Shown here one piece after another: positions 43,013 through 58,773 of a DNA stretch of 64,000 bases (positions are counted from its first letter, which is position 1; the number at the start of each line of letters is the position of its first letter). Source of the DNA: Streptomyces lydicus (GTDB taxonomy: Bacteria; Actinomycetota; Actinomycetes; Streptomycetales; Streptomycetaceae); NCBI RefSeq assembly GCF_000717345.1, contig NZ_JNZA01000005.1:62001-126000 (forward strand). The letters are read 5' to 3'. The notes beneath the pieces were generated by a model. It saw nothing but the letters and a program-made list of their open reading frames with translations, did not search any database and was not told the DNA's origin. The position numbers were made by a program, and so were the translations under genes.

Positions 43013-43034
43013 TCACACGTTGAACAGGAATGCC
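43013..43034 (-). repeat. Candidate attL: displaced copy of the ychF 3' end
   Basis: On the minus strand this reads GCA-TTC-CTG-TTC-AAC-GTG-TGA, encoding AFLFNV and stop. The intact gene ends TTC-CGG-TTC-AAC-GTC-TAA, encoding FRFNV. Fifteen of 18 bases match, including a 9-base identical core GTTCAACGT, in the same orientation. Confidence 0.55.
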
Positions 43035-43135
43035 TGAGGCCCGATCTTGACCTGCGGCGGAGCCCCACCTAGGGCCCTGACCTGGGACATCACGTTGGTA
43101 TGCGTTGGCTCCCGACTGCTGTCTACGAATGTCTT

Positions 43136-43152
43136 GCGGACTGGCTGCGGAC
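43136..43152. promoter_or_regulatory. Candidate integrase arm site, left end
   Basis: GCGGAC occurs twice with 11-base spacing (43136 and 43147), about 100 bases inside the proposed left end. The same arrangement occurs inside the right end at 57612. Confidence 0.35.
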
Positions 43153-43396
43153 CGGATCCGTTGTCGCCTCTCCTGCACTACGTCAGTCTCTCGAACCGGG
43201 CAGCAGTCCCGAAGGCCGGAGATCGCTAGTACCAACATTCTCCGGCCATGCGAGACCGCGCGGGACCATGACAACCGATCTAGGCAGTCGCAGTGATCCA
43301 TTGCCCGCCGAGTTGACCAGTCACGAGTGGCGCCGACCAAGCCCACCCCTCACTGTTCGCGCTCACGCACCTCTGCGGCCCTGGCGGACTCAGGGT

Positions 43397-46117
43397 CTAG
43401 CGGGGCGGCTTAAAGGCAGCAAGGAGTGCCCTGGCCTCAGCATTGTCAAGGTTGAGAGATGCACCCAACGTACGGGCAGCTGTCTCGTAGAGTGCCTGCG
43501 CCTTGCGCTCCAAGGATCGAGCGTCTTCCACGGCCTTGACGGCGGCTTCGCTGACTTCTACAGACGGCACTGGAAGCTGCAACTGAGAGACGATTCCCCA
43601 GTCCACCCTCGTCCTTCCCATCCCCGTCGAAGCAAGAAGAAGGTCGGCCCGAGCTTCCGGAGTACGCAGCATCTGCCAAATAAGAAAGGGATGGTACCCC
43701 TCCCTTGGGCGACACACCGTGTATTCCTTAGTAGCTACCATCCCTTCGAGTTCCACCGGAATTACCGCAACTGCCCCATGGACGGCATTAATGTGGCTAA
43801 TGACCACATCCCCCGCCTTAACCTTATACAGCACGTCGTACGTCGAGTCGGAGGCCACGATAGTCTCGCCAGACTCAGCTACTCCATCATAGCGGACTCG
43901 AAGCAGCGTTACGAGATCATCATTCTCGGCCGGGACGACAATGTCACTCGCTCGATCGATGGACTGCAAACCATCTGCAGAAATTTCGACCGCACCGAAG
44001 GCCGGCCTGAGCATCTCCCCAACGCTCAAGACTTTATGCCCTGCATCCTGCCACTTTTCCACATTTCGCCCTGGACTCGGCAAGCATGCCTTGACATCCA
44101 TTCGGCCATTAATCGCATCAGCGGCTACCGTCCAGTCATCCGCATCAGCTCGCCCATCCAGAAACGCCTTATATAGACTTCCGACTTTTTCGATTTCCGC
44201 TTCTGCAGCCTTGCGGTTCTCTTCATCGATTGGCAGCACTCGTTGGCGAGCAACTTCGTCGATTCCGACCCGGGTGCAGTAGTACATGAAGACCGGCGTC
44301 TGCTCTTCTTCCGGATGATGTTTCTTCTGCAGCACCACGATGGAAGTCTTCACTCGCGCTTGCGAACGCTGAAAAGCATCGCCAGGCAGAGAAACCACTG
44401 CCTTGACGATGAACTTGTCACGTACGTAAGATCGAATTCTCTTTTCCCGATCCCCACCGAGAATTGAGTCGTCGATCACCGTCACGAGGCGGCCACCCGG
44501 CCGCAGCAAGTCGTGGTACCTCTCAATAAACATCATGCTCGACTTCAGGCTAGACACCGGCTTCCGCGTCCGACCTGAATCTTGGAAAGCAAGCTCGTAC
44601 TGATCAAGAATCTGCCGTTCCACATCCGTCTTGCGTGCATACTCCTTCGCAAATGGCGGATTTGTCAGGGCAACATCGAATCCTGAAGTTTCTGCGACGT
44701 ATTTAAACTCATCCTTTTCGTCGCGAACCTCGCGTGTCTCGGTTGGGTGAGACCTGACGCGCTTATCAAGGGCGTCAAGCTGGTAGACGCGGCTTCCGCC
44801 GTCTCCATGCAGGTACATGTTGATGCGGGCGATTCGCGCGAGGGCAGGTTCCTTCGCGACGTCGATTCCGAAGATTCGCTGAGTGGCAATATCCTCGCGC
44901 AGCTTCCCTTTCTCGGCTGCCGACAGGCTCTTATTCCCATCAACCTTTGCCCACATGTCGGAAAGGCTCTCAATTAGAAACCCGCCGGTTCCGCAGCATG
45001 CATCGATCATGGTATCAACATGATCACGCCGAACCTGCAAATCAGCAAGTCGAGTAGCTAGCTTCACCACGCTACGCGGCGTAAAGAACTGACCAAGGTC
45101 TTTACCGCGCAGAGTTGCATTTAGGAACGTCTCAAAAAGACGCCCATTGAGATCCGAGTCCATGCTATAGAGATCAAGGTCTTGTAGTTTTGCCACCACC
45201 CCCTTAATCGTTTCAGGGCTCAGATCAAGAATCTCTCCTGGATTGAAGATCCGCTTCTTATTGCGCTTTCGGATCTCCTCTTCCAGATCGCGGACAAGAT
45301 TTCCGAACTGAACATCGGCAACAGGATTCGGGCTTTCCCTCTCCATCCTTTCAATCCAGGCGGTAGAGAACTTTACCTCGTTTGCAGGAATCTGCAGAGT
45401 GCCATCTTCCGACACTGAAGCTTCAGGATTCGCGTGTATGGCCTTATCGCTCAGCAGCTTAAGGAACACAACTTTCACGAACTCCATGAAAGCAGCAGAG
45501 TAACTGTAGTTCTCGCGACGATAGATGAACTTGTGACACCAAGCGAAAGCTGCGTTAATTTCCGAAATGGATGCAGGGCGAATGGTCATTGATGTCTCAA
45601 AAAGGGAAGGCTGGGAAGACCATCCCTTAGATGCGAACGCATCGGGCGACATGATCTCTTTCAACTTCACCCACTTTTCACTAACACCGTCAAAGTCTTT
45701 AAAGGACAACGAGAGGATTGGATCCTGTCGATCCCACTCGTAAACTTCCGTTTGATCACCGTTCGTCATGATGAAATGCGTAACGGGGTTCCCGTCGCGA
45801 TGGGAAGCGTTGATTTTGTGACAGTAACTGGCTGCCTGACCAACAAAGGGAAGAAGGCTTTCGTCTCTCGCTTTAGCTTCAACGACCCAGCGGATTGTAT
45901 TGTCGACCTCTAGCGCGTAATCCGGTCGATACATCTTTCGCTGACGCCCCTCACTAACCATCAGCTTTGTGAGCGACTCCTTCGTTTTGATCTGCCCGTC
46001 ACGGTAGCCAAGCTCCTCAAGGAGGCGGTTGACGAAGAACGTTTCGACGCTCGCCTCGTTTCCCAACACGGCGCGATCGCAGAACATATTGCGCTGGGAA
46101 TTAAAGGAACTAGGCAC
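43397..46117 (-). CDS. Single-chain restriction-modification enzyme (nuclease, N6-adenine methylase and specificity domains fused)
   Basis: The 906-aa protein combines three parts. Residues 20-130 have a PD-(D/E)xK-type nuclease pattern (RPDY with Asp66, then Glu80-Ala-Lys82 in VVEAKA). Residues about 180-640 are a HsdM-like adenine methylase: FTPRSVVKLA, SAM-binding DACCGTGGF (372-380) and catalytic NPPF (486-489). Residues about 690-900 resemble one target-recognition domain with a helical spacer, as in HsdS. This suits a type IIG-like or one-polypeptide type I-like system defending against foreign DNA. GC content, judged by eye at about 50%, is far below the neighbours, implying transfer. 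The start is a GTG with GAAGGAAG; an inverted repeat spans it. Confidence 0.88.
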   Translation of the reverse strand: MPSSFNSQRNMFCDRAVLGNEASVETFFVNRLLEELGYRDGQIKTKESLTKLMVSEGRQRKMYRPDYALEVDNTIRWVVEAKARDESLLPFVGQAASYCHKINASHRDGNPVTHFIMTNGDQTEVYEWDRQDPILSLSFKDFDGVSEKWVKLKEIMSPDAFASKGWSSQPSLFETSMTIRPASISEINAAFAWCHKFIYRRENYSYSAAFMEFVKVVFLKLLSDKAIHANPEASVSEDGTLQIPANEVKFSTAWIERMERESPNPVADVQFGNLVRDLEEEIRKRNKKRIFNPGEILDLSPETIKGVVAKLQDLDLYSMDSDLNGRLFETFLNATLRGKDLGQFFTPRSVVKLATRLADLQVRRDHVDTMIDACCGTGGFLIESLSDMWAKVDGNKSLSAAEKGKLREDIATQRIFGIDVAKEPALARIARINMYLHGDGGSRVYQLDALDKRVRSHPTETREVRDEKDEFKYVAETSGFDVALTNPPFAKEYARKTDVERQILDQYELAFQDSGRTRKPVSSLKSSMMFIERYHDLLRPGGRLVTVIDDSILGGDREKRIRSYVRDKFIVKAVVSLPGDAFQRSQARVKTSIVVLQKKHHPEEEQTPVFMYYCTRVGIDEVARQRVLPIDEENRKAAEAEIEKVGSLYKAFLDGRADADDWTVAADAINGRMDVKACLPSPGRNVEKWQDAGHKVLSVGEMLRPAFGAVEISADGLQSIDRASDIVVPAENDDLVTLLRVRYDGVAESGETIVASDSTYDVLYKVKAGDVVISHINAVHGAVAVIPVELEGMVATKEYTVCRPREGYHPFLIWQMLRTPEARADLLLASTGMGRTRVDWGIVSQLQLPVPSVEVSEAAVKAVEDARSLERKAQALYETAARTLGASLNLDNAEARALLAAFKPPR

Positions 46118-46123
46118 TAGTTC
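46107..46123. promoter_or_regulatory. Inverted repeat spanning the start codon of the restriction-modification gene
   Basis: GAACTAG-GCA-CTAGTTC overlaps the GTG start (46115-46117) and abuts the ribosome-binding site. It could be an operator or an mRNA hairpin limiting translation. Confidence 0.45.
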
Positions 46124-46300
46124 TTCCTTCTAATGAGAGCTTATGTGTGGAGCTTCTACCCATGATGATTGACGCGCGGCCAACTACCCAAATAGAGCAG
46201 CCTACATCACCTGAGTGCAAGCAGTACCGGCGGGTACTACTAGTAGTCCGAACTCGACTGACGAACCAGGGCTATGGCTAGGAAGGCAACGACCAACGGT

Positions 46301-46798
46301 CTACTGCCACCCGTCGAGCGAGACTTGAAGCCCGCCTGCAAGGTACCGGTGAACGGCACTGGCGGTAGTGTCCACGAACCTTTCGGGAATGGCGTCAGCG
46401 TCGACCCAGCGGACCTGGCTGTGCTTGTGGGGTTCACGGTTCTCGGGTTCACCGGTCCATTCGTGGGTGGCGAAGACGACGGTGAGGAAGCCGTTGGGGG
46501 CTTCGACGCCCCAGGCGCCGTGGATGATATGGGCGACCTTGAGGGACTCTGGCTTCACGGTGAGGCCCGTCTCCTCGAAAAGCTCGCGGACCGCGGTCTC
46601 GGTGATGGGCTCGCCCGGTTCGCTCTTGCCGACGGGGAGGTCCCACTTGCCTTGGGCGAACTTGGCGTTCTCGCTGCGCTGGAGGAGGACGACGCGGTTG
46701 GTGGCCTTGTCGTGGACGATGACGGCCGCGACCAGCAGGGTCATCGAGTCGAGCGCCGGCTTGAGGGCCTTCGGCTGGTCATCGGTCTGCTGGGCCAC
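46301..46798 (-). CDS. NUDIX hydrolase
   Basis: Starting at a GTG (46798) with a GAAGGGA ribosome-binding site, the product is 165 aa; an ATG at 46831 would add 11 residues but overlaps the upstream stop and has no such site. The Nudix box is complete at residues 57-79 (GKSEPGE, then RELFEETGL). TLLVAAVIVHDKATNRVVLLQRSE before the box resembles MutT-type enzymes acting on nucleoside di- or triphosphates. It follows the XRE-TPR regulator by 34 bases on the same strand, so the two are probably co-transcribed. Substrate unknown. Confidence 0.9.
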   Translation of the reverse strand: MAQQTDDQPKALKPALDSMTLLVAAVIVHDKATNRVVLLQRSENAKFAQGKWDLPVGKSEPGEPITETAVRELFEETGLTVKPESLKVAHIIHGAWGVEAPNGFLTVVFATHEWTGEPENREPHKHSQVRWVDADAIPERFVDTTASAVHRYLAGGLQVSLDGWQ

Positions 46799-46832
46799 GG
46801 TGTTCCCTTCGTCGGGCGGGTTGTTGGGCATG

Positions 46833-48188
46833 TTAGGCGAGGGCCTCGCGGGCGCGGCGGGCGAGATCGGCGGCACCGGGGACGCGACGGCGCTGGTAGA
46901 CCGCGAGGGTGGAGCGGATCGAGGTGATCGCTTTGCGGGTGCGGTCGGAGGTCATGCCTTCCATGAGCACGAGGGCCTGGGTCCAAGCGGCGACCGCTTC
47001 ATCAGCTCGGGTCTGGGCGGCAAGGCTGTCGCCGAGGTCGGCGTAGGTGAGGGCGTGGACGCGCTTGTACTTGTCGGGGTCCCAGCGGGTGAGGGCGTCC
47101 CGGTGCTGCTGTTCGGTGCCGATGTGGTCGGCGAGGTCAGTGAGGGTGCGGGCGGTGTGGCTGGCCACGGTGCCGGCAGCCGGGCCGCTGACGCGGGAGT
47201 AGCTGGGCTGGGTGCCGTCGTCCCGTAGGAGGGCGTCTTCGGCAGCGAGGAGGGCACGTGCTGCTGCCGGGTTCTCGTCGGTGGCCGCGTAGGCGCGGGC
47301 GTGGGTGATGTGGAGGAGAGCCTCGGTCTGGCCGTCGACGTGGCCGAGGCCGCGTCGCAGGGCGCCTTCGACGAGGTCGACGCAGTGGTGGGGCAGCTTG
47401 AGGCTCAGGGCCTGGTGGGCGAGGGCGCGCATCATCCAGGCCGCGTGACCTTGGGGGTCGGCTTCGCAGGCGAGCTGGTAGCCGACTTGGTAGTAGCGCT
47501 GGGCCGCGCCCTCGTGGCCCAGGTCGTGGTGCTTCCACCCGGCGAGGTAGGCGAGTTCGGCGACGGCGCCGAAGGCGGCGCGGCGTAACGGCTCCGAGGG
47601 GAAGCGTCCGCGGAGCATCGGGGCGGCGGTGTCGGCGAGGTACGCGGTGACGGTGGTCAGACCGTGCCCGCCGCCGAGACGCTCGTCGGCGGCGCTGAAG
47701 GCCGCGGTGATCTGGCGTACGACGTCCACGTCCTCCGCGCCGACCACGGATGTGCCGGTGCGGGCTCGGAGCATGCGGGCGGCGGCCTCGTGGTCGTAGC
47801 CGAGCGGCATGGCGACGCCGGCGGTGGTGAAGGCCGCGATGGAGAGGAAACGTCGGCGCTCGACGTCGGCGCGGCCCAGGTCGGTGACGGCGAGGACGGG
47901 GTCGGATTCCGCCGGCTCTTCGGCCTCGCCAGCGCGTAGGCCGATCTCGGTCTGGGTGATCGTTCGTCCCTCTCGGCGGGACAGCGCTTCGGCGAGGTAT
48001 TGGCCTACCCGGCCCGAGGGGCTGCGGGTGCCGTTCACCCAGTGCGAGATGGCCGACTTGTTGGTCTGGAGGATCTCGCCGTTCTCGGCGGCGATGCGCC
48101 GCACGTCTCGGGCGAGGGCCTCGTAGGTGCAGCCGACCGCGTCGATGACTTCGCGCAGAAGGAAGTTGGGGGCTCTCTGCGCCGCCAC
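46833..48188 (-). CDS. XRE-type helix-turn-helix regulator with TPR-like repeats
   Basis: The 451-aa protein has an N-terminal DNA-binding region (about 1-75: LLREVIDAVGCTYEALARDV, KSAISHWVNGTRSP) and a long helical repeat region of about 35-residue units rich in Ala and Leu, as in actinobacterial TPR regulators that bind peptides or partner proteins. The GTG start at 48188 has GGAGGCGAAC upstream. It is divergent from the 249-aa gene across 222 bases and co-oriented with the NUDIX gene, so it may control the whole cargo set. Confidence 0.88.
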   Translation of the reverse strand: MAAQRAPNFLLREVIDAVGCTYEALARDVRRIAAENGEILQTNKSAISHWVNGTRSPSGRVGQYLAEALSRREGRTITQTEIGLRAGEAEEPAESDPVLAVTDLGRADVERRRFLSIAAFTTAGVAMPLGYDHEAAARMLRARTGTSVVGAEDVDVVRQITAAFSAADERLGGGHGLTTVTAYLADTAAPMLRGRFPSEPLRRAAFGAVAELAYLAGWKHHDLGHEGAAQRYYQVGYQLACEADPQGHAAWMMRALAHQALSLKLPHHCVDLVEGALRRGLGHVDGQTEALLHITHARAYAATDENPAAARALLAAEDALLRDDGTQPSYSRVSGPAAGTVASHTARTLTDLADHIGTEQQHRDALTRWDPDKYKRVHALTYADLGDSLAAQTRADEAVAAWTQALVLMEGMTSDRTRKAITSIRSTLAVYQRRRVPGAADLARRAREALA

Positions 48189-48410
48189 GTTCGCCTCCGC
48201 TCCGGAGCTGTAAACCGCGTATACCGCTTCAACTGCCTTCCACCGTACCCACTGAGCGTGACCACCGGTTCACTTATCAGCAGCCGCCCGGAACGGCGCG
48301 ACCGTGATCCAGGCTCCCCCTTGGTCCGGGCGGCTCCCCGAAGTTCCGTACGCCCACACCGGCTTCGGGCATTCCTGTGCCCGGACCGGACGATCAGAGA
48401 CGGAGACACG

Positions 48411-49160
48411 GTGACCACCATCGACACCACGGCCATCACGGTCGAGCTGCCCGAGGCGTTCGACCCGCGCTGGAGCCGACTGCCCGGCATCCAGGTCAAC
48501 GGCCGGCGCATCACCATCGACCCGGCCGAGTACTTCTTCCGCTTCGAGTCGAGCACGTGGCTCGTCGCCGACTGGGAGCTGGTCAAGGCCCAGCTCCTGG
48601 ACGTGGACGAGACGACCGAGAGCGCGGTCGAGCAGCTCGCGCTCGACTTCATCAAGCACCACGGCGGGTCCACCTCGGACGCCGCTCGCGTACTGACCAC
48701 CGCGTACGAGGTGTACGCCTACCTCTTCCGCGATGAGCACCTGGCCGGTCTCGGGCTCCCGCAGATCACCGCTGACCACCTGCGGATGCTCCGCGAGGCA
48801 GCCACGCTCATGGCGCTCAACAAGGTCGAACTGGACGGTCACATCTCCAACGTCGGCCCGTGCTGGTTCTTCCCCGCCGCCACCTCCGTCGTCTTCGACC
48901 TGGACGACGACATGGGCGGGATGCTCGATGAGGTCTACCACGGCGGCTGGTTCAACGAGCACCGCCGGATCGAGTCCATCAAGGCCCACGCCGCGCTGGG
49001 TGGACGCCTGGTGCACGGCTGCCAGTCCGTGCCGGACCAGACCGGTGGTGTCGTCGCGCCCTACGGCGCCTTGATGGCGAACTTCCGTGACGACCTCGCC
49101 GCGTTCAAGGCGGGCTGGATCGCGCAGGTCTACGCCCGCCGCGTGAACCCCGCCGCATAA
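48411..49160 (+). CDS. Unrecognised 249-aa protein in the element cargo
   Basis: The GTG at 48411 (GGAGACACG upstream) gives 249 aa beginning VTTIDTTAITVELPEAF; the frame stays open upstream through the regulator gene's 5' end, which I treat as shadow. The protein is soluble and mixed alpha/beta, with aromatic-rich patches (EYFFRFESSTWLVADWELV, GPCWFFPAATSVVFDLDDDMGG) and no signal or membrane helix. The conserved-looking acidic DLDDDMGG and CWFF stretches could form an active site. I recognise no family. It heads a plus-strand series of four genes likely expressed together, under divergent control with the XRE-TPR regulator. Confidence 0.72.
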   Translation: MTTIDTTAITVELPEAFDPRWSRLPGIQVNGRRITIDPAEYFFRFESSTWLVADWELVKAQLLDVDETTESAVEQLALDFIKHHGGSTSDAARVLTTAYEVYAYLFRDEHLAGLGLPQITADHLRMLREAATLMALNKVELDGHISNVGPCWFFPAATSVVFDLDDDMGGMLDEVYHGGWFNEHRRIESIKAHAALGGRLVHGCQSVPDQTGGVVAPYGALMANFRDDLAAFKAGWIAQVYARRVNPAA

Positions 49161-49237
49161 CCCTCACCCGATCAGGTTCCGGGGCGGGCCGGCCCCACTT
49201 GCCCGCCCTGGACGCCTCCAACCGACCGGAGCCCCCG

Positions 49238-50149
49238 ATGAGCCCGAACCCCAGCGCCGAACTCCTCGACAACCTGATCACCGTGATCGGTCAGGCCGCC
49301 GCCGTACGGGAGGAGGTCCGCGTGTGGTCGATGTCCGGAGTCGAGCGCGTGGCCTTCCCTGACGGCTCCACGGCCATCTTCAAGTACGCCAAGAAACCGT
49401 TCGACAGCGAGGATCAGGCCCTCCACCTGGCCCACACCCTCGGCGTTCCCGTCCCCCAGGTCCACGCATCCGCCGTTCTGGACGGCTGGCTCGGCATGCT
49501 CATGGAGGACCTCGGACCGTCCGTGCGCGAGGCCGATGACCTGGACGGCGTCGCCGCAGCCGTGGTCCTGCACGGCACCCGTGCGGCTCCTCCCTTGCCC
49601 GTCCTGGACCGGGAGCGGCTGCGTATGCTGCCGGCCCGGGCATTGGAGCACCTCGGACGGCTGCGCAAGGCCGACCGGTGGCAGGAAGCCGACGACGTCG
49701 AGGACACGCTCGACCGGGTTGGCCAGGCAGCCGAAGACCGCTCGGCCGGAGCGACGCTGGCGCCGTTCGGCTGGGTGCACTCCGAGTTTCACCCCACCAG
49801 CCTCCACCTCGGCAAGCGCGGGTGGCGACTGCTCGACTTCGCCCGCGCCTTCACCGGCCCCGGTCTGCTCGACCTCGCCAGCTGGCACGGCACCATCGAG
49901 CCCCCGCACCCTGTGCGCCTGCGCGTGTTCCTGGAGCAGTACGTCACCGCCGGCGGAACCCCCGACGCCCTCGCCCCACGCGGCGGGCTCGCCGCCGAGA
50001 ACTGGGCCCTGGGCTGGCACCGCATGTGGGCCGTCGAGTGGTTCATGGAGCAGGCCATCCGCTGGATCGACGACCCGGCCACCGACCCTGCCTACATCAA
50101 GGTCGTCCGACGCCACCTCAGCGATGTCCTCCACCTTCTGGAGATCTGA
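49238..50149 (+). CDS. Aminoglycoside phosphotransferase-like kinase with altered catalytic residues
   Basis: The 303-aa protein has the APH/choline kinase outline: a small N-lobe with AIFKYAKK (likely nucleotide lysine Lys49), then the C-lobe with VHSEFHPTSLHL (180-191) and LLDFARAF (198-205). In typical enzymes the catalytic loop is HGDxxxxN; here it is His181-Ser-Glu183 with Ser188 in place of Asn. Asp200 of the metal-binding motif remains. It may be a weak or repurposed kinase, not necessarily a resistance enzyme. The methyltransferase gene follows after one base. Confidence 0.8.
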   Translation: MSPNPSAELLDNLITVIGQAAAVREEVRVWSMSGVERVAFPDGSTAIFKYAKKPFDSEDQALHLAHTLGVPVPQVHASAVLDGWLGMLMEDLGPSVREADDLDGVAAAVVLHGTRAAPPLPVLDRERLRMLPARALEHLGRLRKADRWQEADDVEDTLDRVGQAAEDRSAGATLAPFGWVHSEFHPTSLHLGKRGWRLLDFARAFTGPGLLDLASWHGTIEPPHPVRLRVFLEQYVTAGGTPDALAPRGGLAAENWALGWHRMWAVEWFMEQAIRWIDDPATDPAYIKVVRRHLSDVLHLLEI

Positions 50150-50150
50150 C

Positions 50151-50843
50151 GTGCTCGCCCAGGCTTCCCCATGGCACGCCCACGCCCTTCAGCGCACCGC
50201 CGCCGGACTTGCCGAACCCCTCGCCGTACCCGCCCGGATGGAGTGGACCACGAGACCCGGTCAAGGGCCCGGCGCCGAGATCCTCGGCCCCGACCTGCAC
50301 GGCAAGCGACTCCTCGAACTCGGCTGCGGCCCCGGTCACAACGCCGCCCACCTCGCCACCCGCCACGGCGCCCACGTCACCGGCGTCGACTTGGTCGGCC
50401 TCCAGGTCCGCCGCGCCCGCTCCCACTACGGACGGCTGAACAACCTCACCTTCGTCGCCGGCCATGCCCTGCACTACCTGCACGCCTCCGACGAGCAGTT
50501 CGACGCGATCTACTCCGTCTTCGGCGCCGTCGGGCTTGTCGCCCCCGAACTCCTCCTCCCAGCCCTCGCCCAACGCCTCACGCCCGGCCGGGTACTCGCC
50601 TTCTCCGTCCCCCACCCGCAGCGCGGCGGCCGAAGCCCCGCCGCCGACGACCGGCCCCGCCGCGACCACGTCACTCTCCCCGACCGCACCCAGCTCCCCA
50701 TCGCTCGCTGGGAGTTCGCCACCGACCACTGGGATAAGCACCTCAGCCGGGCGGGCTTCTGGCTCACCGCGTCCCAGGAGTTCCACGACCCCCGCATGGG
50801 CCACTGGCCCACCACCTTGCTGATCCGCGCTCGCAGGCTCTGA
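50151..50843 (+). CDS. SAM-dependent class I methyltransferase
   Basis: The 230-aa product starts at a GTG one base after the kinase stop, implying coupled translation. Motif I is LLELGCGPGH (54-63), with an acidic end to the second strand in HVTGVDLVGLQ, and motif post-I in FDAIYSVFGAVG. The C-terminal region (LPIARWEFATDHWDKHLSRAGF) is typical of small-molecule methyltransferases of the UbiE/BioC fold. Substrate unknown; its tight pairing with a kinase-like gene suggests successive action on the same compound or RNA/protein partner. Confidence 0.87.
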   Translation: MLAQASPWHAHALQRTAAGLAEPLAVPARMEWTTRPGQGPGAEILGPDLHGKRLLELGCGPGHNAAHLATRHGAHVTGVDLVGLQVRRARSHYGRLNNLTFVAGHALHYLHASDEQFDAIYSVFGAVGLVAPELLLPALAQRLTPGRVLAFSVPHPQRGGRSPAADDRPRRDHVTLPDRTQLPIARWEFATDHWDKHLSRAGFWLTASQEFHDPRMGHWPTTLLIRARRL

Positions 50844-51456: not shown

Positions 51457-51465
51457 CGCGAACCC

Positions 51466-51488: not shown

Positions 51489-51518
51489 GCCGCGACGTGG
51501 CGAGGGCATCTGGCCGGG

Positions 51519-52967
51519 TCAGCGGTGCCGACCGCGTTCTTCGGGCCTCATGGCCATTGGTGACGTGGCCGGAGGGTGCAATGTGGCAGTCGCGGACGAG
51601 GCGCCGCTGGTGGTGCGTCGTCCGCGAGCGGCTTGCGCCCGCTTGTTCGGTTGAGCAGTGATGCGCCAGTTGAGGACCTCGGCGGGGTGCTCGACGCTGT
51701 TGAGTTCTCGCTCTGATCCCACCTCTGCCAGGAGGCGTCGGGGATTGTGGCCGGCGGTCTCGGCGTAGGCGAGGGTTGTGGTCAGGGCGGCCCAAGCGGG
51801 GTCGGTGAGGATCCGGTCGGCGTGGTTGGGGAGGGTCGCGCGAACGTCCTGCTCGAAGCGGCGGGCGGTCGCGGCTCGCGGTGCGCGGCGGGCCAAGTCG
51901 GCCAGGACGGGTGAGGTGGCCTGCTGATAGCCCGCCTGAAGGTGGCGGAAGGCTTCCTCGGCCGCAGCGGCCTGCTGTTCGTGGCCGCGCTGCTCGTGCC
52001 ACTTGGCGGCGGCGCGGGCCAGATGAACGGTGGTGAAGAGCAGGGCGATGGCGAGCCCTCCCGGCTCGCTGGAGGCGTAGGCGAGTTCCTTGGCTGCCTT
52101 GCGCAAGGCGGTGGCGCCTTGGTGGTCGGCGCGGATGGCGGAGCGACGGGCGCGGTTGAACGCTTTGGCCGCCGCCCGCAGTTCTGCCCGGTGTGGGCTG
52201 GTCGTGGCGCTGGCGATGTTGTACAGGGCATCGCCGAAGGCGGCCAGGTAGCCCTGGGCGGCGGCATCGTCACCGGAGTCGAGGACGGAGTGCGCCGTGT
52301 GTATTGCGGTGGTGGCGTTCCTCCATGGCTCGGCAGGGTCCGCCGCATCCTGCGGGCGGTCGGCCACTTCCTGGTCGGGGAGGCGTTCGCGTAGACGGTT
52401 GATGGAGAGGTCAGGGGCGAGTTTCGAGCCGCCGTACCAGACGGGTTCGCCCGCCGCGTTGGTGTCGCCAGGTGCGGCGAGGCTGTAGCCGATCACGTCA
52501 CCAGTCTCTGGGCCGAGGCGAGTCTTGACCTTGATGCCGAGGGACTGGAGCACGGTGAAGTAGTCGGCTTCGTTGTGTACGGCGGCGACCGCGTACGCCT
52601 GCTCGCGCAGCCACTGCCGTGCCGTGACCGCCTGGCCCTGGCGCTCGGCCTTGGCGCGTTCGGCGCCGGTGGGGGTGCGAGGAGCGGTGAGGTAGCGGTC
52701 GCCGGGCGCGGTACGGACCGGACAGTGCCAGACATGCTGAGGTGGTTTCTTGCCACCCAGCTCGCGGGTGCGTAGGTCGACGTGGTGGTCGAGGCGCTTG
52801 GCGAGCTGGGAGTAGGTGGCCGCCGGGTCGCGGCCGGGGTCAGGGGCGCCGGCCATGTCCCAGGCGGCGACGATATGAGAGTCCGTGTGTTCGTCGCGTC
52901 GGCCGGGGCCGAAGAGGTAGACGATCAGTCCGCGGGAGTCGGAACCGGTGGAGACGTCAGGCACCAT
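51519..52967 (-). CDS. Relaxase/mobilization protein
   Basis: The 482-aa protein starts MVPDVSTGSDSRGLIVYLFGPGR, a beginning I associate with actinobacterial mobilization relaxases. It continues with EHTDSHIVAAWDM and, at about residues 78-92, HVWHCPVRTAPGDR, probably part of the metal-binding active site. The second half is helical and Ala-rich, likely for DNA or partner binding. Relaxases nick one strand at oriT and pilot it during conjugation. The gene overlaps the end of the mobC-like gene by 11 bases, forming a classical mobCA pair. The canonical three-histidine motif is not fully evident. Confidence 0.82.
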   Translation of the reverse strand: MVPDVSTGSDSRGLIVYLFGPGRRDEHTDSHIVAAWDMAGAPDPGRDPAATYSQLAKRLDHHVDLRTRELGGKKPPQHVWHCPVRTAPGDRYLTAPRTPTGAERAKAERQGQAVTARQWLREQAYAVAAVHNEADYFTVLQSLGIKVKTRLGPETGDVIGYSLAAPGDTNAAGEPVWYGGSKLAPDLSINRLRERLPDQEVADRPQDAADPAEPWRNATTAIHTAHSVLDSGDDAAAQGYLAAFGDALYNIASATTSPHRAELRAAAKAFNRARRSAIRADHQGATALRKAAKELAYASSEPGGLAIALLFTTVHLARAAAKWHEQRGHEQQAAAAEEAFRHLQAGYQQATSPVLADLARRAPRAATARRFEQDVRATLPNHADRILTDPAWAALTTTLAYAETAGHNPRRLLAEVGSERELNSVEHPAEVLNWRITAQPNKRAQAARGRRTTSGASSATATLHPPATSPMAMRPEERGRHR

Positions 52968-53667
52968 GAGCGGTGCCCTCTGCCAGGAGCTGGTCGATCA
53001 GTCGGTAGCTCTTCTCGGCTGATTGCTCGACGCATTCCAGCACGGCCTCGGCACGCTCGGGCACCGTTCCTCGGTGGATGGCTGCGGTGATCTGGTTGAG
53101 GTTGCCACCGATGCGGTTCAGCGCGACCGTGTGCGCCTCGACGGCCTCGATCAGCGGGCGGAGTGGATCGTCCTCCGGGCTGCCAACCAGCCCCGCCTTG
53201 CCAAGGGCGACGGCGAGGGCGGCGTCCCCGACGAATCCGGCGAACTTCTGCCCGCGCTGGTGAGCGGCGGCGCTGATCACGCGGACCGCGGTCCGCGTGA
53301 AGCGGATGGTCTTCTCCTGGTCGCGCTTTTCAACCGTGCGCTTGCGGTTCATCAGCGCGGGCAGGACGGGGGCGTCGAGATCCCGCCAGGAGGGCTGCTC
53401 GACGGGCGGTTGGACTTCGGCGGGCGGCTGAGTGATCGGGGCGACGGAATCTGCTGCGGGCAGGCAGCCGATCTCGGCTATGCCCTCCTCCGGCTCGTGC
53501 GCCCCCTGGCGCTCGGCCTTCTCCTCCGCCACCCCTGGGGCGGGGGCAAGCGCGGACGAAGCCTCGTTAGAGGCTCGTTCGCTCCAGCTTGCTGCTGATC
53601 GACAGGTCAGGCCGAAGAATCCCTTGCGGCGGCGGGTGGGGGCGTTGTCGGTGCTCGTTTCGGACAT
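52957..53667 (-). CDS. MobC-like relaxosome accessory protein
   Basis: The 236-aa protein has a non-conserved N-terminal half (about 1-105) and a C-terminal MobC domain. The core is KTIRFTRTAVRVISAAAHQRG, followed by the family hallmark LNRIGGNLNQITAAIHRGT, then a helical tail. MobC helps the relaxase open DNA at oriT. An initiator at MNRKRTVEK (about residue 107) would give just the domain; the upstream ATG with a GGAG site at 53667 is retained. The palindrome-rich region just upstream (53707-53828) is the obvious oriT candidate. Confidence 0.88.
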   Translation of the reverse strand: MSETSTDNAPTRRRKGFFGLTCRSAASWSERASNEASSALAPAPGVAEEKAERQGAHEPEEGIAEIGCLPAADSVAPITQPPAEVQPPVEQPSWRDLDAPVLPALMNRKRTVEKRDQEKTIRFTRTAVRVISAAAHQRGQKFAGFVGDAALAVALGKAGLVGSPEDDPLRPLIEAVEAHTVALNRIGGNLNQITAAIHRGTVPERAEAVLECVEQSAEKSYRLIDQLLAEGTAHGA

Positions 53668-53706
53668 GGTGGCGCTCCGGTGGTCGTGGGGTGGGGCTTC
53701 GTCACG

Positions 53707-53828
53707 TCCGTTGCATCCGTCCCGTAGCTGGTCAGGGTGGGTACGGAGGCGGGCGCCGGTACGGAGTGATCCGTATCGGCAAGGAACTCCGTCCCCGCGC
53801 TGACCTGCGCGGGGACGGATGCGACGGA
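53707..53828. other. Candidate origin of transfer (oriT): nested inverted repeats
   Basis: An outer 17-base inverted repeat (53707-53723 and 53812-53828, one mismatch) encloses a perfect 13-bp stem with TGACCT loop (53788-53800 and 53807-53819), a TACGGA-GTGA-TCCGTA palindrome near 53760, and repeated (G/A)TACGGAG. It lies directly upstream of the mobC-relaxase genes, the usual oriT position. The outer and inner repeats share bases, so they are alternative folds. Confidence 0.5.
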
Positions 53829-53845
53829 TTGATACGGAGCTGGTG

Positions 53846-55468
53846 TCAGCGAGTGGGCTTGGGGCTGGCAGGCCCGCCGGGCGGACCGATGGGCAGCATC
53901 CCGGTGGGAGGGGCGGGCAGCTTGCCGTGGGTTGGCCGTGCGAGCGCGGCCTCGTCGGCTGTGGGGGCCGGCTGGGAAGGGTCAGGGCAGTAGCGAGCCC
54001 AGGCGTCGAAGAACTGGTTACGGGCGTACGCCTTGGCCTGCCTGCCGTTCTCGAAACGGTGGTTGGCCGGGCTGATGCCGAAGTCGCGCAGCAGGTTGGC
54101 CAGGTGGTAGGCGTTCAGACCCTTGGTCCCGTACTCGGCCCACGGCCCCTCGGCGTCCTGGACGAGGGCGGCGAGCAGGTCCTGGCTGCGCAGAGCATCC
54201 TTGTTGCCCTCCTGCTCGAACACACGGCGGACGTCGCGCAGCAGCCGCGTCTTCAGCGTCGTCTGCTCGTCCTGGACCACCTCGTTGCGCGTCATCGCCA
54301 GGCAGGCGGCACGGGCCCGCGAGGGCCAGTGACCGCCGGCCAGGTCGGCGACGATCACCAGCGGCTCCCAGGTGTCGGCGGCGCGATCCTCGACCGGCAT
54401 CTTCGGAACCAAGCCCGCGGCGCTGCTCCGCAGCGGGGCCAGCCAGGCGGTCAGCCGGTCACGCAGAGCGTGCAGTTCGGGCAGCGAGTACCGCGAGCGG
54501 AATGGAGTGATCCGCTCGCCCGGCTTACGCTTCTGCATGCGGATGACGACCGCCCGGTCCATGATCGTGTCCGGTAGGTTGCCGATCCCGGCGAGCGCGG
54601 CCATGGCGAAGGTGGGAAACGCCGTCGGCTTGTGCTCTGGCCCGGAGATCCGCCAGGCGGGTCGGTTGCGCTGGTGCCCGGCGTTCAGCAGGCCGCGAAG
54701 GTCCTCCTTGTCGCCGGCCTTGGGGCCGAAGATGGTGTCGGCCTCGTCCACCAGCAGCGTCGGCGGGTTCTTGCCGATGACGCGGAACACCACCGCAGGC
54801 GACGTGTTCACCGTCATCATCGGCTGGTGCACGGTCTCATGGAGCACGTCCAGGACCCGGGACTTGCCGCACCCCTTGGTCGGCCCCACGACCGCCAGCC
54901 GTGGGGCGTGCTGGAGGGCAGGCTGGATGTGGGAGGCCGCCACCCACAGCGTGACCGCCGTCAGGGCCTCGTCGCTCGGCAGCACCGCGTACCGGCCGAT
55001 CGCCGCACGTAGGTCATCCAGCAGCGCGGCTCCTTCGTCGGCCGTCTCGCTGCTCGTACCGGCGCGGTCCCCGGTCCCCGATTCGCCGTCGGGGACCACG
55101 GTCCCCGCAGATGCGTGGGGACCGTGGCCCTCGCCATCTACTCGCAGCGCGCCGCGCTGGTCCGAGATTCGGGGACCGGGTTCGGGGACCGGCGGACCGA
55201 AAGTCTCCGCCCGGTCCCCGGCTTCCGCGCCGGCGGGACCGGTCCCCAAGGCGCTGACCTGCTCATATTCCGTGCGGGGGGAATTTCGGTCCCCGACCGG
55301 AACACCCGTCGAAGCATCACGGCTGGCGTGTGCAGCAGGGGACCGTGACTCCGTTCGGTCCCCGCTTCGGTCCCCGTTGCGCCAGGGGATGCCCTGGCCG
55401 GGGACCGCGGTGGTGGGCCAGACAACCTTGGATGTGTTCGAGGTGGCGGGGGACGTAAAGTCCTCCAT
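53846..55468 (-). CDS. DUF3631-type P-loop ATPase of the mobile element
   Basis: The 540-aa protein begins at MEDFTSPATS (ATG at 55468 with AGAGGA upstream). Residues 1-150 are low complexity. The ATPase region has Walker A VVGPTKGCGKSR and Walker B PTLLVDEAD, then sensor-like sequence and a DUF3631-like C-terminus (RAADTWEPLVIVADLAGG). Proteins of this kind occur on actinobacterial plasmids and integrated elements, where a replication or helicase-loading role is suspected. The DNA encoding the N-terminal region contains about 13 copies of GGGGACC/GGTCCCC. Confidence 0.83.
   Translation of the reverse strand: MEDFTSPATSNTSKVVWPTTAVPGQGIPWRNGDRSGDRTESRSPAAHASRDASTGVPVGDRNSPRTEYEQVSALGTGPAGAEAGDRAETFGPPVPEPGPRISDQRGALRVDGEGHGPHASAGTVVPDGESGTGDRAGTSSETADEGAALLDDLRAAIGRYAVLPSDEALTAVTLWVAASHIQPALQHAPRLAVVGPTKGCGKSRVLDVLHETVHQPMMTVNTSPAVVFRVIGKNPPTLLVDEADTIFGPKAGDKEDLRGLLNAGHQRNRPAWRISGPEHKPTAFPTFAMAALAGIGNLPDTIMDRAVVIRMQKRKPGERITPFRSRYSLPELHALRDRLTAWLAPLRSSAAGLVPKMPVEDRAADTWEPLVIVADLAGGHWPSRARAACLAMTRNEVVQDEQTTLKTRLLRDVRRVFEQEGNKDALRSQDLLAALVQDAEGPWAEYGTKGLNAYHLANLLRDFGISPANHRFENGRQAKAYARNQFFDAWARYCPDPSQPAPTADEAALARPTHGKLPAPPTGMLPIGPPGGPASPKPTR
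55066..55406. repeat. Cluster of GGGGACC/GGTCCCC motifs within the DUF3631 gene
   Basis: About 13 copies in both orientations occur in 340 bases, for example at 55066, 55073, 55091, 55100, 55117, 55171, 55184, 55213, 55241, 55288, 55338, 55357, 55369 and 55400. In the protein they appear as loosely repeated Gly-Asp-Arg. Such density suggests a protein-binding or origin function in DNA. Confidence 0.6.
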
Positions 55469-55616
55469 AGACGTTCCTCTCAAGTGAGGGACGGGACGGG
55501 CAAGGTCCCGCCCCTCACCGGTTCGTTCGTTCAGGGATGGGCGACGTGCAGGGGAATCTCCGGCCCTCGGCGTTGGCGCGCCGGGGGCCGTTGCTGTGTC
55601 TGGGGCTGCCGGCAGC

Positions 55617-55811
55617 TCATGAGGCCAGGCCCCACTCGTCTCGGCCGTCGATCAAGGTGCGCTCGTAGCGCAGCAGCTCGGCCTCGGGGTACAGCACCCG
55701 CTTGCCGACCCTGATGCCGAGCGGCCCCTTCTTGATGTGGCGCCAGTAGCGGACGGTGCTTTCGGCTGTGCGGTAGCGCTCGGCGACCTCGGCGGTGGTC
55801 AGATATCGCAT
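55617..55811 (-). CDS. AlpA/excisionase-like small DNA-binding protein
   Basis: The 64-aa MRYLTTAEVAERYRTAESTVRYWRHIKKGP... is a MerR/AlpA-type winged helix used by excisionases. GIRVGKRVLYPEAELLRYE forms the wing region. The ATG at 55811 has GGGAA upstream. A longer in-frame reading exists but covers the regulatory region. Lying close to the integrase, divergently from the XRE regulator, it probably directs excision of the element. It is unlikely to be a transcriptional activator of distant genes. Confidence 0.85.
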   Translation of the reverse strand: MRYLTTAEVAERYRTAESTVRYWRHIKKGPLGIRVGKRVLYPEAELLRYERTLIDGRDEWGLAS

Positions 55812-55875
55812 GCATTCCCATTCGGCTAGGAAGTGATTCGATCCGCATAGAGTTGTACCCCAGGATCGGCGGTTA

Positions 55876-55912
55876 CCCAAATTGGGAAGCTCGTGTTTCA
55901 ATTGGGATAGCT
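55876..55912. promoter_or_regulatory. Operator-like repeats between excisionase and XRE regulator
   Basis: CCCAAATTGGG (55876-55886) is a perfect palindrome. ATTGGGA-AGCT at 55881 recurs as ATTGGGA-TAGCT at 55901, spaced 20 bases, about two helical turns. The interval between divergent starts (55811 and 55933) is AT-rich, as expected for a lysogeny-type switch. Confidence 0.45.
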
Positions 55913-55932
55913 ACGGTGACGATGGAGGTTCG

Positions 55933-56433
55933 ATGGCAGGCGACAAGCCCGAGGGTGGCGAGGTGCCCCTGCTCTACAGCGAGGGGAACGTGGCCGCGCG
56001 CGTGGCCCTGGAGCGCGAGGTCAGAGGTTGGAGCACGACCGAGCTGGCCGAGCGGGTGACCAGGGCTGGCGTCAGGATGAACCAGACAGCGGTCTGGCGC
56101 ATCGAGAACGGCACGCCTCGCCGGCGCATCAACCTCGACGAGGCCCTCGCCTTTACGCGGGTCTTCGAACTCCCCCTCGAAGAGCTCATGTCACCGCCCC
56201 TGGAGGGCCTCGACATCGATAGCCGCCGGCTCGTCCAGGAAGCCGTCGAGGCGTTCTACGAGACCCGAGACGCACGCGACCGCCTGCACCACGCCGTGGT
56301 CGCCATCGCCAATCACGTCAAGGCTCACCCCGACAGCTCGCGGGCGATCCACGAGCAGTGCCTCCGCCTCATGGGCGACGAGCGGGACGCTCGCACCCTC
56401 ACCAGTGACATCGAGGACGGCGGCCACTACTGA
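55933..56433 (+). CDS. XRE family transcriptional regulator of the element
   Basis: The start is ATG at 55933 behind GGAGG, giving 166 aa. An XRE helix-turn-helix occupies about residues 15-85 (GWSTTELAERV, MNQTAVWRIENGTPRRRI, LDEALAFTRVFELPLEELM), followed by a helical tail. A longer reading starts inside the operator region and is unlikely. The gene precedes the integrase by 24 bases, so it is probably co-transcribed with it and keeps the excisionase side repressed. This is the expected phage-like control module. Confidence 0.9.
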   Translation: MAGDKPEGGEVPLLYSEGNVAARVALEREVRGWSTTELAERVTRAGVRMNQTAVWRIENGTPRRRINLDEALAFTRVFELPLEELMSPPLEGLDIDSRRLVQEAVEAFYETRDARDRLHHAVVAIANHVKAHPDSSRAIHEQCLRLMGDERDARTLTSDIEDGGHY

Positions 56434-56457
56434 TAACCGACGCGAAGGAGAGGCCAC

Positions 56458-57576
56458 TTGGCCAACATCCAGAAGCGCCCCAACGGCAAATGGCGGGCCC
56501 GCTACCGCGACCTCGACGGCAAGGAGCACGCCCGCCACTTCGACCGCAAGATCGACGCCCAGCGGTGGCTCGACGAGGTCACGGCCAGCGTGGTCACCGG
56601 ACAGTACGTCGACCCGCGGTCGGCGAAGAAGCCCTTCAAAGAGTACGCAGAGGAATGGCGGGCCATCCAGCCGCACCGGCCTTCCACGGCCAAGGCGGTG
56701 GCCCAGCACTTGCGCTGCTACGTCTACCCCGCTTGGGAGAAGCGGGCACTCGGCGCCATCAAGCCCGGCGACGTACAGAGCTGGGTCACCAGCCTGACCG
56801 CCACGCATGGGCTGGCCGCCAGCACCTCACGCACGGTCTTCAACACGGTCAACGCCGTCTTCCGGGCGGCCGTCCGTGATCGGATGATCCCTCACAACCC
56901 GTGCGCCGAGGCGAAGCTGCCGTCGGTACCACGGAAGAAGATCGTGCCACTGGCCGTTGAGCAGGTGCGGACGCTGTCCGAGGAGATACCCGCCCGGTAC
57001 AAGGGCCTTGTGCTGCTCGGCGCGGCCACTGGGCTCCGCCCCGGCGAGCTCTTCGGCCTCCAACTCCGGCACGTGGACCTGCTGCACGCGACCGTCTCGG
57101 TCGAGCAGCAGATACAGCAGGCCGCCAAGCATGGGGTGTACGTCGGACCGCCGAAGACCGCGCGCTCACACCGCACGGTTCCGCTCCCCCGCATGGCAGT
57201 GGATGCGATGAAGGCCCACCTGCGGGACTTCCCCGCCGATGGGCCCGAGAGCTGGATCTTCACGGCGCCGCAAGGCGGGCCTGTGGTCTACACGCACTTC
57301 ATGGACGGGTCCTGGCGGCCCGCCTGCGCCAAGGCCGGCCTACCGAAGGGCACCGGACCCCACGCCCTCCGGCACCACTACGCCAGCCTGCTGATCAAGC
57401 ACGGCGAGTCGGTGAAGACCGTCTCTGAGCGCCTCGGCCACACCAACGCGGCCATGACGCTGAACATCTACACCCACCTGTGGCCCGACTCCGAGGAGCG
57501 GACCCGGGCCGCCGTCGACAAGGCGTACGCGGACCGCCCTGCGGACGGCGAGACGGCGGTCGACGAAGCGGCGTAA
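56458..57576 (+). CDS. int: Tyrosine site-specific integrase
   Basis: The 372-aa recombinase begins with TTG at 56458 (GAAGGAGAG upstream). It has an N-terminal arm-binding region (MANIQKRPNGKWRARYRD), a SAM-like core-binding domain (60-160) and a catalytic domain with Arg194 in ATGLRPGEL, His302 and Arg305 in HALRHHY, His328 in LGHTN and nucleophile Tyr338 in NIYTHLW. All catalytic residues are intact, so it should be active. It lies just inside the proposed right end and converges on ychF, 108 bases away. The target site would be the ychF terminus. Confidence 0.95.
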   Translation: MANIQKRPNGKWRARYRDLDGKEHARHFDRKIDAQRWLDEVTASVVTGQYVDPRSAKKPFKEYAEEWRAIQPHRPSTAKAVAQHLRCYVYPAWEKRALGAIKPGDVQSWVTSLTATHGLAASTSRTVFNTVNAVFRAAVRDRMIPHNPCAEAKLPSVPRKKIVPLAVEQVRTLSEEIPARYKGLVLLGAATGLRPGELFGLQLRHVDLLHATVSVEQQIQQAAKHGVYVGPPKTARSHRTVPLPRMAVDAMKAHLRDFPADGPESWIFTAPQGGPVVYTHFMDGSWRPACAKAGLPKGTGPHALRHHYASLLIKHGESVKTVSERLGHTNAAMTLNIYTHLWPDSEERTRAAVDKAYADRPADGETAVDEAA

Positions 57577-57611
57577 CCGCTCCACCTCGTGCCGGACTCA
57601 TCCAGCACGTT

Positions 57612-57628
57612 GCGGACTCTGCGCGGAC
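57612..57628. promoter_or_regulatory. Candidate integrase arm site, right end
   Basis: GCGGAC occurs at 57612 and 57623 with 11-base spacing, about 60 bases inside the proposed attachment core. A matching pair is at 43136. Confidence 0.35.
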
Positions 57629-57631
57629 CGC

Positions 57632-57673
57632 AAAGGCCGCCCAACCCGCTCCGTCGCAGGTCAGACGGCCTTT
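57632..57673. terminator. Bidirectional hairpin between integrase and ychF
   Basis: AAAGGCCG (57632-57639) pairs with CGGCCTTT (57666-57673); the flanking A- and T-runs suit termination in both directions between the convergent genes. Confidence 0.55.
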
Positions 57674-57684
57674 CGCCGGACGTA

Positions 57685-58773
<1,089 letters not shown>

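What the first reader, a model, noticed from the sequence alone, without database searches (positions are those of the whole stretch)
43013..57706. Integrated mobilizable element that uses the ychF 3' end as its attachment site
A tyrosine integrase lies next to ychF. At the far left, positions 43013-43034 read on the minus strand as a second YchF C-terminus (FxFNV plus stop). Fifteen of 18 bases match, including the 9-base core GTTCAACGT, with orientation as expected for a displaced attB half. Tyrosine integrases often use tRNA genes; a protein-coding target such as ychF is less familiar to me and may define a distinct family.
Basis: partly seen in the sequence, partly recalled or inferred. 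Interest (0 to 1): 0.72.

Follow-up and report, generated by a model that had tools for sequence, protein, structure and literature searches.

The report
Mobile element docked on ychF gene
A 14.7-kilobase mobile DNA element in a Streptomyces-type bacterium has inserted itself exactly into the tail end of the core gene ychF and given the gene a replacement tail; the same element, with different cargo genes that often look like virus-defence genes, sits at the same spot in many related bacteria.

Summary
The finding holds. The window carries a 14.7-kb element (43,017 to 57,688) bounded by imperfect copies of the last codons of ychF. In four relatives (G004, G018, G035, G012) the left neighbour, a Uma2-type gene, is followed directly by the ychF end; the window's flanks joined at the core align across the junction as one block to three of them (1,820, 1,820 and 1,308 bp). 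In a named-genome scan 26 of 43 integrase loci have ychF immediately next to the integrase and 5 more within 10 kb. Displaced ychF tails read Val-stop in 14 of 15; the element supplies its own Val-stop, so YchF stays intact.

It works like an integrative and mobilizable element: integrase, excisionase-like and MobC/NikA-like proteins, relaxase, oriT-like hairpin. But this copy's relaxase lacks about 83 residues with the HxH motif, so it probably cannot start its own transfer. A left cargo bay is variable; many of its large genes look like defence genes. Integrase cousins lie at 3' ends of other conserved genes, so target choice has switched. Protein-gene 3' ends are known targets; this site I did not find in print.

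The parts
42315..42896 (+). Uma2-type gene (193 aa), chromosomal left flank; neighbour of ychF in relatives
   Evidence: tblastn synteny with ychF: directly adjacent in G004, G018, G035, and (gene degraded) G012; in G017 about 0.55 kb extra and a shortened match. The name Uma2 is recalled, not from a call
43013..43027 (-). displaced original 3' end of ychF (F-N-V-stop, TGA)
43017..43030 (.). left core (attL)
   Evidence: same position relative to the conserved inward sequence in 14 other elements
43048..43056 (-). inverted arm motif CGCAGGTCA, +31 from the core; putative integrase arm site
   Evidence: +31 in 10 of 10 elements for which the offset was computed
43397..46117 (-). cargo: 906-aa N6 DNA methyltransferase; a PD-(D/E)xK-like stretch near the N-terminus was seen by eye, so perhaps a fused restriction-modification enzyme
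   Evidence: PF02384 4.4e-33; PADLOC type I/II MTase; MAD2 model 209 bits, below its cut-off of 720
46301..46876 (-). NUDIX hydrolase, backbone gene; possible Pif-like conjugal immunity (inference)
   Evidence: PF00293 1.2e-21; found in most relatives
46833..48188 (-). NsdA-family regulator, backbone (start uncertain)
   Evidence: NF053720, 350.8 bits vs cut-off 75
48453..49160 (+). conserved backbone protein of unknown function (start uncertain)
   Evidence: no Pfam hit; conserved
49199..50149 (+). conserved backbone protein, no family hit (phosphotransferase-like by eye only)
50109..50843 (+). class I methyltransferase, backbone (start uncertain)
   Evidence: PF13649 2.5e-14
50878..51456 (+). 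HAD domain protein, backbone
   Evidence: PF18143 2.9e-08
51519..52967 (-). MobA/VirD2-type relaxase with an internal in-frame deletion of about 83 aa that removes the HxH motif
   Evidence: window copy has no Pfam hit; full-length homologue in G024 hits PF03432 2.9e-09; alignment
52957..53667 (-). MobC/NikA-like relaxosome protein
   Evidence: weak: PF21983 0.0028, PF05713 0.0056, both below cut-off; conserved next to the relaxase
53707..53838 (.). conserved palindromic region with a hairpin of two perfect 13-bp arms; the motif CGCAGGTCA spans its loop and inner arm bases; oriT candidate
53846..55483 (-). DUF3631 protein, backbone
   Evidence: PF12307 7.1e-72
55617..55901 (-). excisionase-like HTH_17 protein (start uncertain)
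   Evidence: PF12728 3.4e-09
55882..56433 (+). HTH regulator preceding the integrase gene
   Evidence: PF13560 0.00074, below cut-off; conserved
56458..57576 (+). tyrosine integrase, 372 aa
   Evidence: PF00589 and PF22022; R194, H302, R305, H328, Y338 invariant among 14 aligned sequences; their catalytic role is recalled
57655..57663 (+). arm motif CGCAGGTCA, -34 from the right core
   Evidence: at exactly -34 in 30 of 33 ychF-type cores of the named loci
57689..57702 (.). right core (attR), inside the ychF 3' end
57685..58773 (-). ychF; the last base of the Val codon and the TAA stop lie on the element side of the core
   Evidence: TIGR00092 1.1e-132; codon counts

Best explanation
The 14.7-kb segment is an integrated element of the integrative-and-mobilizable type whose tyrosine integrase uses the 3' end of ychF as attB. 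In the circular form the attP carries a copy of the last ychF codons plus stop, flanked by two inverted copies of CGCAGGTCA that probably bind the integrase arm domain (inferred). Recombination within the ACGTTGAA core gives ychF the element's own Val-stop and pushes the original ychF tail to the far left end (shown by comparison). The HTH_17 protein probably directs excision (inferred). A relaxase, a MobC/NikA-like protein and the hairpin before mobC would, in intact members, let the circle be nicked and moved by another element's transfer apparatus (inferred). A bay between attL and the NUDIX gene holds variable cargo, here a DNA methyltransferase. In this copy the relaxase lacks its catalytic motif, so it may still excise but probably cannot start its own transfer.
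For: Empty sites: uma2 directly followed by ychF in G004, G018, G035 and G012; joined window flanks give a single alignment across the junction to G018 (1,820 bp, 87%), G004 (1,820 bp, 86%) and G012 (1,308 bp, 84%). Same site elsewhere: 10 of the 19 integrase loci found in 392 genus genomes, the window's own included, have ychF directly downstream; 5 more have it on the same contig 2.6-18 kb away. Of 43 loci in the named-genome scan 26 are directly at ychF and 5 within 10 kb; the two sets share genomes. Fifteen left ends (window included) share the inward sequence, and 14 of 15 displaced cores keep Val-stop (G024 read). Ends differ as predicted: cores followed by ychF-like sequence read GTC-TAA in 20 of 33; 0 of 15 displaced tails has TAA. 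Backbone order recurs in relatives. Integrase more alike than YchF in 20 of 21 host pairs at protein level, 16 of 21 at DNA level, as expected for horizontal movement. Integrase clade support 100/96.
Against: No excised circle or transfer was observed. The relaxase of this copy lacks the HxH motif, and the window's two cores differ at one base within the 14, so this copy could be fixed in place. Some relatives also lack a full relaxase (G088 and G179 shortened, G196 partial, G233 and G314 none). The MobC assignment is weak (below Pfam cut-off). The oriT is a structural guess. Integrase, excisionase and arm-site roles rest on homology and position. One clade member (G314) has its truncated integrase 119 kb from ychF, and for G109 ychF is on another contig; in the named scan 12 of 43 loci show no ychF in the stretch held.
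Confidence: 0.93

Rival explanations
1. A decayed island: it entered by the integrase at ychF long ago, but this copy is now immobile and kept for its cargo.
For: Relaxase lacks the catalytic motif; core copies differ by one base; relatives show degraded integrases at ychF (L126, L128, L129, L134, L135, L137, L138) and a 77-aa remnant in G016.
Against: Integrase is full length with the expected catalytic residues, the excisionase-like gene is open, both arm motifs are at the conserved spacing. Loss of the relaxase would stop transfer, not excision.
Confidence: 0.4
2. An actinomycete ICE (AICE) that moves double-stranded DNA with a TraB/FtsK-type protein.
For: Actinobacterial host; NUDIX and regulator genes resemble AICE accessory genes (PMC3218068, passages read).
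Against: No FtsK/SpoIIIE domain in the 13 element proteins scanned; relaxase and MobC-like genes are present instead. The host genome has 12 FtsK-family matches, none of them in the element.
Confidence: 0.03
3. A phage satellite or prophage remnant rather than a conjugation parasite.
For: A cargo bay with defence-like genes recalls phage satellites (recalled); a pneumococcal satellite prophage integrates upstream of ychF (PMC10383233, passage read).
Against: Full-length relaxase in 9 of 11 relatives aligned and a conserved oriT-like hairpin. No capsid, terminase or portal hit among the 13 element proteins scanned with Pfam and, for 10 of them, NCBIfam; PHROGs was not searched.
Confidence: 0.04
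4. Chance repeat: the genes belong to the chromosome and the FNV-stop at 43 kb is a coincidence.
For: The repeat alone is short and imperfect (15/18).
Against: Empty sites and multiple conserved left ends.
Confidence: 0.005

Closest known systems
Integrative and mobilizable elements (IMEs) targeting 3' ends of housekeeping protein genes (review PMC5704250, passages read)
   Same: tyrosine integrase, target gene end restored by the element, relaxase and accessory protein, no transfer apparatus of its own found
   Different: ychF has 0 occurrences in that review's main text; backbone with DUF3631, NUDIX, NsdA-type regulator, methyltransferase and HAD genes; this copy's relaxase is defective
Pneumococcal prophage PPH005 / satellite PhiBM6001.4 at ychF (PMC6375853, PMC8637289, PMC10383233; passages read)
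   Same: integrate next to ychF
   Different: they insert upstream of ychF, in its promoter region, and can alter its expression; here it is the 3' coding end, which is restored
PAISt of Streptomyces turgidiscabies at the bacA 3' end (PMC4057263, passages read)
   Same: Streptomyces, tyrosine recombinase, 3' end of a protein gene, modular/tandem arrays
   Different: 8-bp palindrome core, 674 kb, described there as an ICE
dusA-targeting integrase family (PMC4482086, start of abstract in a search listing only)
   Same: one integrase family defined by one protein-coding target
   Different: 5' end of dusA; other elements
AICEs such as pSAM2 (PMC3218068, passages read; Streptomyces population survey PMC9513070, passages read: 36 tRNA, 14 protein-coding and 1 intergenic insertion sites)
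   Same: actinobacterial, NUDIX gene of the Pif kind, sometimes protein-gene targets, accretion at one site
   Different: TraB-type transfer; not met here

Membership tests
IME | site-specific recombinase gene at one end | tested here: met
   PF00589 integrase beside the right core
IME | flanking att repeats and an empty site | tested here: met
IME | own relaxase or oriT for mobilization | tested here: inconclusive
   full-length relaxase in 9 of 11 relatives aligned; window copy lacks the HxH stretch; oriT only a candidate
IME | no complete transfer apparatus of its own | tested here: met
   no T4SS or FtsK domain among the 13 element proteins scanned
IME | transfer with a helper | not testable with these tools
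   needs mating experiments; host genome has one AAA_10 match (the VirB4-type reading is recalled)
AICE | TraB (FtsK/SpoIIIE) translocase in the element | tested here: not met
AICE | Rep-type replication initiator | tested here: inconclusive
   only a DUF3631 protein was found; no Rep model hit
phage satellite | packaging or helper-interference genes | tested here: inconclusive
   none among Pfam and NCBIfam hits; PHROGs not run
ychF-3'-end integrase clade | integrase groups with other ychF-adjacent integrases | tested here: met
   clade of 18 rows, support 100/96, in a 35-row tree; L139 from another family is a separate ychF user outside it

The most novel reading that the evidence does not exclude
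One integrase lineage has repeatedly changed its docking gene: the window's group uses the 3' end of ychF, its nearest group the 3' end of a type II topoisomerase subunit B gene, and more distant cousins a DtxR-type regulator, mmsA and the RNase P RNA gene. The nearer groups keep the CGCAGGTCA arm motif and parts of the same backbone. In its ychF form the chassis acts as a shuttle for interchangeable genes, many of them anti-phage, in a fixed bay, and has made ychF in Streptomycetaceae a defence hot spot.
Probability: 0.5. Interest if true: 0.65.

Novelty: new member of a known kind. Interest (0 to 1): 0.5.

Why it matters
It gives a mapped, widely occurring attachment site (the ychF 3' end) and its integrase in antibiotic-producing bacteria, a possible new integration site that leaves the core gene intact. 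The set of related integrases at different gene ends makes it possible to ask which integrase residues choose the target. The variable left bay is a place to look for unrecognised defence genes.

Tried and rejected
Chance repeat: rejected by empty sites. AICE: rejected, no TraB in the element. tRNA target: no tRNA or tmRNA gene in the window. A second full ychF: not supported, only the displaced tail is present. I first took the 35-kb, 5-kb, 3-kb and 1.5-kb inserts between uma2 and ychF in G013, G028, G016 and G031 for sister elements; only G016 keeps an integrase piece of this kind, G028 has a core-like site after its Uma2-type gene, G013 and G031 have neither by my searches, so the three without an integrase piece are left unexplained. 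The 7.4-kb distances between integrase and ychF in L103 and L127 are not second elements: genes, in L127 a type I restriction set, lie between the integrase and attR. Left-end pattern searches did not find attL for G088, G153, G362, G411 and G233 in the stretches fetched. G017 was at first counted as a clean empty site; recounting shows about 0.55 kb extra and a shortened Uma2 match, so it is not counted. For the topoisomerase group one of two genomes searched gave a displaced copy (G819, 57 nt at 81%, E 6e-08; G877 none), and for mmsA one of two (G1009 29/29; G111 none). A protein-database search returned 2,432 proteins at E <= 1e-60 among 7,998 scored candidates, 120 listed; I used it only to see that identity falls gradually. 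A family scan for integrases in five genomes was used only for G104, G379 and G293.
Full report
What is there. The window holds a segment bounded by two copies of the ychF tail. The right copy is inside ychF itself (57689-57702); the left copy is at 43017-43030 and reads F-N-V-stop on the minus strand. The two 18-mers match in 15 of 18 bases. No other place in the window matches that well, and 50 simulated windows gave none. There is no tRNA gene in the window. G+C falls from about 70% in the left flank to 49-60% just inside the left core, in the cargo gene.

Empty sites. I searched 61 genomes for the left flank; 39 had some match. Of the 19 relatives' loci fetched, each with 1.5 kb around the match, five contain ychF. 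In G004 and G018 the Uma2-type gene ends 117 nt from the ychF coding end, as the window's own left flank predicts; in G035 the gap is 80 nt; in G012 it is about 90 nt and the Uma2-type gene is degraded. G017 has a shortened Uma2 match and about 0.55 kb extra, so I do not count it. Joining the window's flanks at the core gives one alignment across the junction to G018 (1,820 bp, 87%), G004 (1,820 bp, 86%) and G012 (1,308 bp, 84%). For G035 and G017 the ychF side starts at the core and the Uma2-type gene aligns separately. Four other genomes with a close Uma2-type match (G013, G016, G028, G031) have about 35, 3, 5 and 1.5 kb between it and ychF. G016 keeps a 77-aa piece of a related integrase there; no related integrase was found in the other three stretches.

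A family of elements at the same place. The integrase has matches at E <= 1e-95 in 19 of 392 genus genomes. Ten of the 19, the window's own included, have ychF directly downstream. Of the other nine, five (G303, G104, G379, G293, G070) have ychF on the same contig 2.6 to 18 kb away, one (G109) has it on another contig, one (G314, truncated integrase) 119 kb away, and two (G111, G277; 61% and 54% identity) elsewhere. In the named-genome collection 43 loci encode a relative. Twenty-six have ychF immediately next to the integrase (within 200 nt), five within 10 kb (L103, L122, L127, L131, L133), and twelve have none in the stretch held (L096, L099, L112, L113, L116, L120, L130, L136 and the Nocardioides loci L123, L124, L125, L132); several of the twelve end at a contig end. 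Hosts of direct cases include Kitasatospora sp. GP82 and, with a degraded integrase, Actinacidiphila cocklensis. The two sets share genomes.

Ends. Fifteen left cores, the window's included, are followed inward by the same kind of sequence (GATCCTGACCTGCGGCGGAG and variants). Fourteen of the 15 displaced tails still read Val plus stop; G109 does not. The script's line for G024 was off by two bases and I read that one. At 33 core sites followed by ychF-like sequence in the 43 named loci the last codon and stop are GTC-TAA in 20; 0 of the 15 displaced tails has TAA. So the element brings its own Val-stop, and the chromosome's original stop is pushed to the far end. The motif CGCAGGTCA lies 31 bp inside the left core in 10 of 10 elements for which the offset was computed, and, in the opposite orientation, exactly 34 bp before the core in 30 of those 33 right sites; the three others are L134 (one base different) and the cores of L122 and L133 that lie away from the integrase. 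I read it as the integrase arm site; that is inference.

Gene content. Right of the cargo, the order NUDIX, NsdA-family regulator, two conserved unknown proteins, methyltransferase, HAD protein, relaxase, MobC/NikA-like protein, DUF3631 protein, excisionase-like protein, regulator, integrase recurs in relatives; G196, G179, G233 and G314 have lost parts. The full-length relaxase of G024 hits PF03432; the window copy does not. In an alignment with 11 relatives, nine are 565-589 aa, two are shortened (G088, G179), and the window copy lacks about 83 aa that contain the HADDHIHIM motif. G196 (partial match), G233 and G314 (no match) were not in that alignment. The region before mobC is conserved in 11 of 11 elements compared, with a gap in G411; in the window it forms a hairpin of two perfect 13-bp arms, and CGCAGGTCA spans the loop and inner arm bases. 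I propose it as oriT. The 13 element proteins scanned contain no FtsK/SpoIIIE or T4SS domain.

Cargo. In 15 elements with a mapped left core the genes between it and the backbone vary. Nine have one or more large genes (window, G024, G379, G179, G293, G109, L117, L131, L136); six have only small genes, mostly of unknown function (G196, G303, G104, G314, L126, L135), for example DUF6000. Of 10 large cargo proteins scanned against PADLOC, five have a hit at 1e-5 or better (window methyltransferase, G024, G179 AbiU at 2e-182, G293, G109), two only weak hits (L131 caspase 3e-4, L136 ThsA-type 3e-4), three none (two from G379, one from L117). Of those three, Pfam gives SIR2 and STAND domains, a macro domain, and a STAND domain. 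G109 also has GmrSD and AlbA_2 domains, G024 AlbA_2 with NB-ARC. Such hits mark a type of domain; no defence was tested.

Horizontal movement. In 21 host pairs with full-length integrase and YchF, the integrase is more alike than YchF in 20 at protein level and 16 at DNA level. YchF is a core protein, so this is what transfer between species would give.

Target switching. I searched 394 class genomes (8 with a match at E <= 1e-95) and 394 family genomes (19 with a match). Integrases 75-79% identical (L151, L152, L156) lie at the 3' end of a type II topoisomerase subunit B gene; one at 70% (L120/L154) at a DtxR-type gene; two at about 60% (L059, L157) at mmsA (family scan done for L157, L059 read by eye); four at 47-51% (L140, L141, L143, L144) at the RNase P RNA gene; one at 67% from another family (L139) at ychF again. 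The targets of other distant hits (L060, L123-L125, L132, L142, L158) were not resolved. Displaced copies support the reading for dtxR (24/24), mmsA in G1009 (29/29), ychF in G707 (18/19), rnpB in G643 (24/27) and topoisomerase B in G819 (57 nt, 81%), but not for topoisomerase B in G877 or mmsA in G111. The CGCAGGTCA motif is at the right end of the three topoisomerase users, the DtxR user and L157, not in L139, L059 or the rnpB users that I looked at. In a 35-row tree the Streptomycetaceae ychF users form one group (18 rows, 100/96), the topoisomerase users another (100/98); their sister relation has 90/83, short of the program's star. L139 falls outside, with the mmsA users (92/89); the root is a midpoint. 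So ychF was adopted at least twice or kept from an ancestor.

Literature. I searched for ychF with integrase, prophage, attB and Streptomyces terms and for Streptomyces IMEs. Only searches listed every paper found; the others showed 15 of 1,106, 534, 934 and 143. I found pneumococcal elements upstream of ychF (passages) and no report of the ychF 3' end in Streptomyces; most subscription papers and the island databases were not searchable. IMEs at 3' ends of housekeeping genes are known, and PAISt at bacA is a Streptomyces precedent.

Verdict. The observation and its reading are right. This is a new family of a known kind of element, with an unusually well-resolved site. It may still be excisable; its own relaxase is probably dead in this copy.

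Noticed in passing
window 51519-52967: The relaxase lacks about 83 residues including the HxH motif that 9 of 11 aligned relatives keep.
   Followed up: yes
window 53801-53809, 43048-43056, 57655-57663: The same 9-base motif CGCAGGTCA sits at both element ends and in the hairpin before mobC; within the element it occurs only at these three places. A shared binding protein for excision and transfer is possible.
   Followed up: partly
G104:C1:4774755-4787358 (L073, L092): A second, distant integrase (29% identity) lies beside a ychF-type core, with another core at ychF 12.5 kb away: possibly a different integrase lineage using the same site.
   Followed up: partly
G013:C1:5593840-5628933 (L032, L033): A 35-kb island with several very large open frames lies between ychF and the Uma2-type gene, with no related integrase found.
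   Followed up: no
L103 11117-18586, L127 11114-18547: Extra genes lie between integrase and attR, in L127 a type I restriction set: a second cargo position (families scanned for L127 only).
   Followed up: partly
L133 11335-17554: Three large open frames that look by eye like a type I restriction set lie between a displaced core and ychF (not scanned).
   Followed up: no
L140, L141, L143, L144: Integrases about 50% identical lie next to the RNase P RNA gene (RF00010).
   Followed up: partly
empty sites in L002 and L009: The chromosomal stretch beyond the ychF end has a TGACCTGC motif some 50-60 bp from the core, resembling the element's arm motif; perhaps a remnant of older insertions (sequences).
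   Followed up: no
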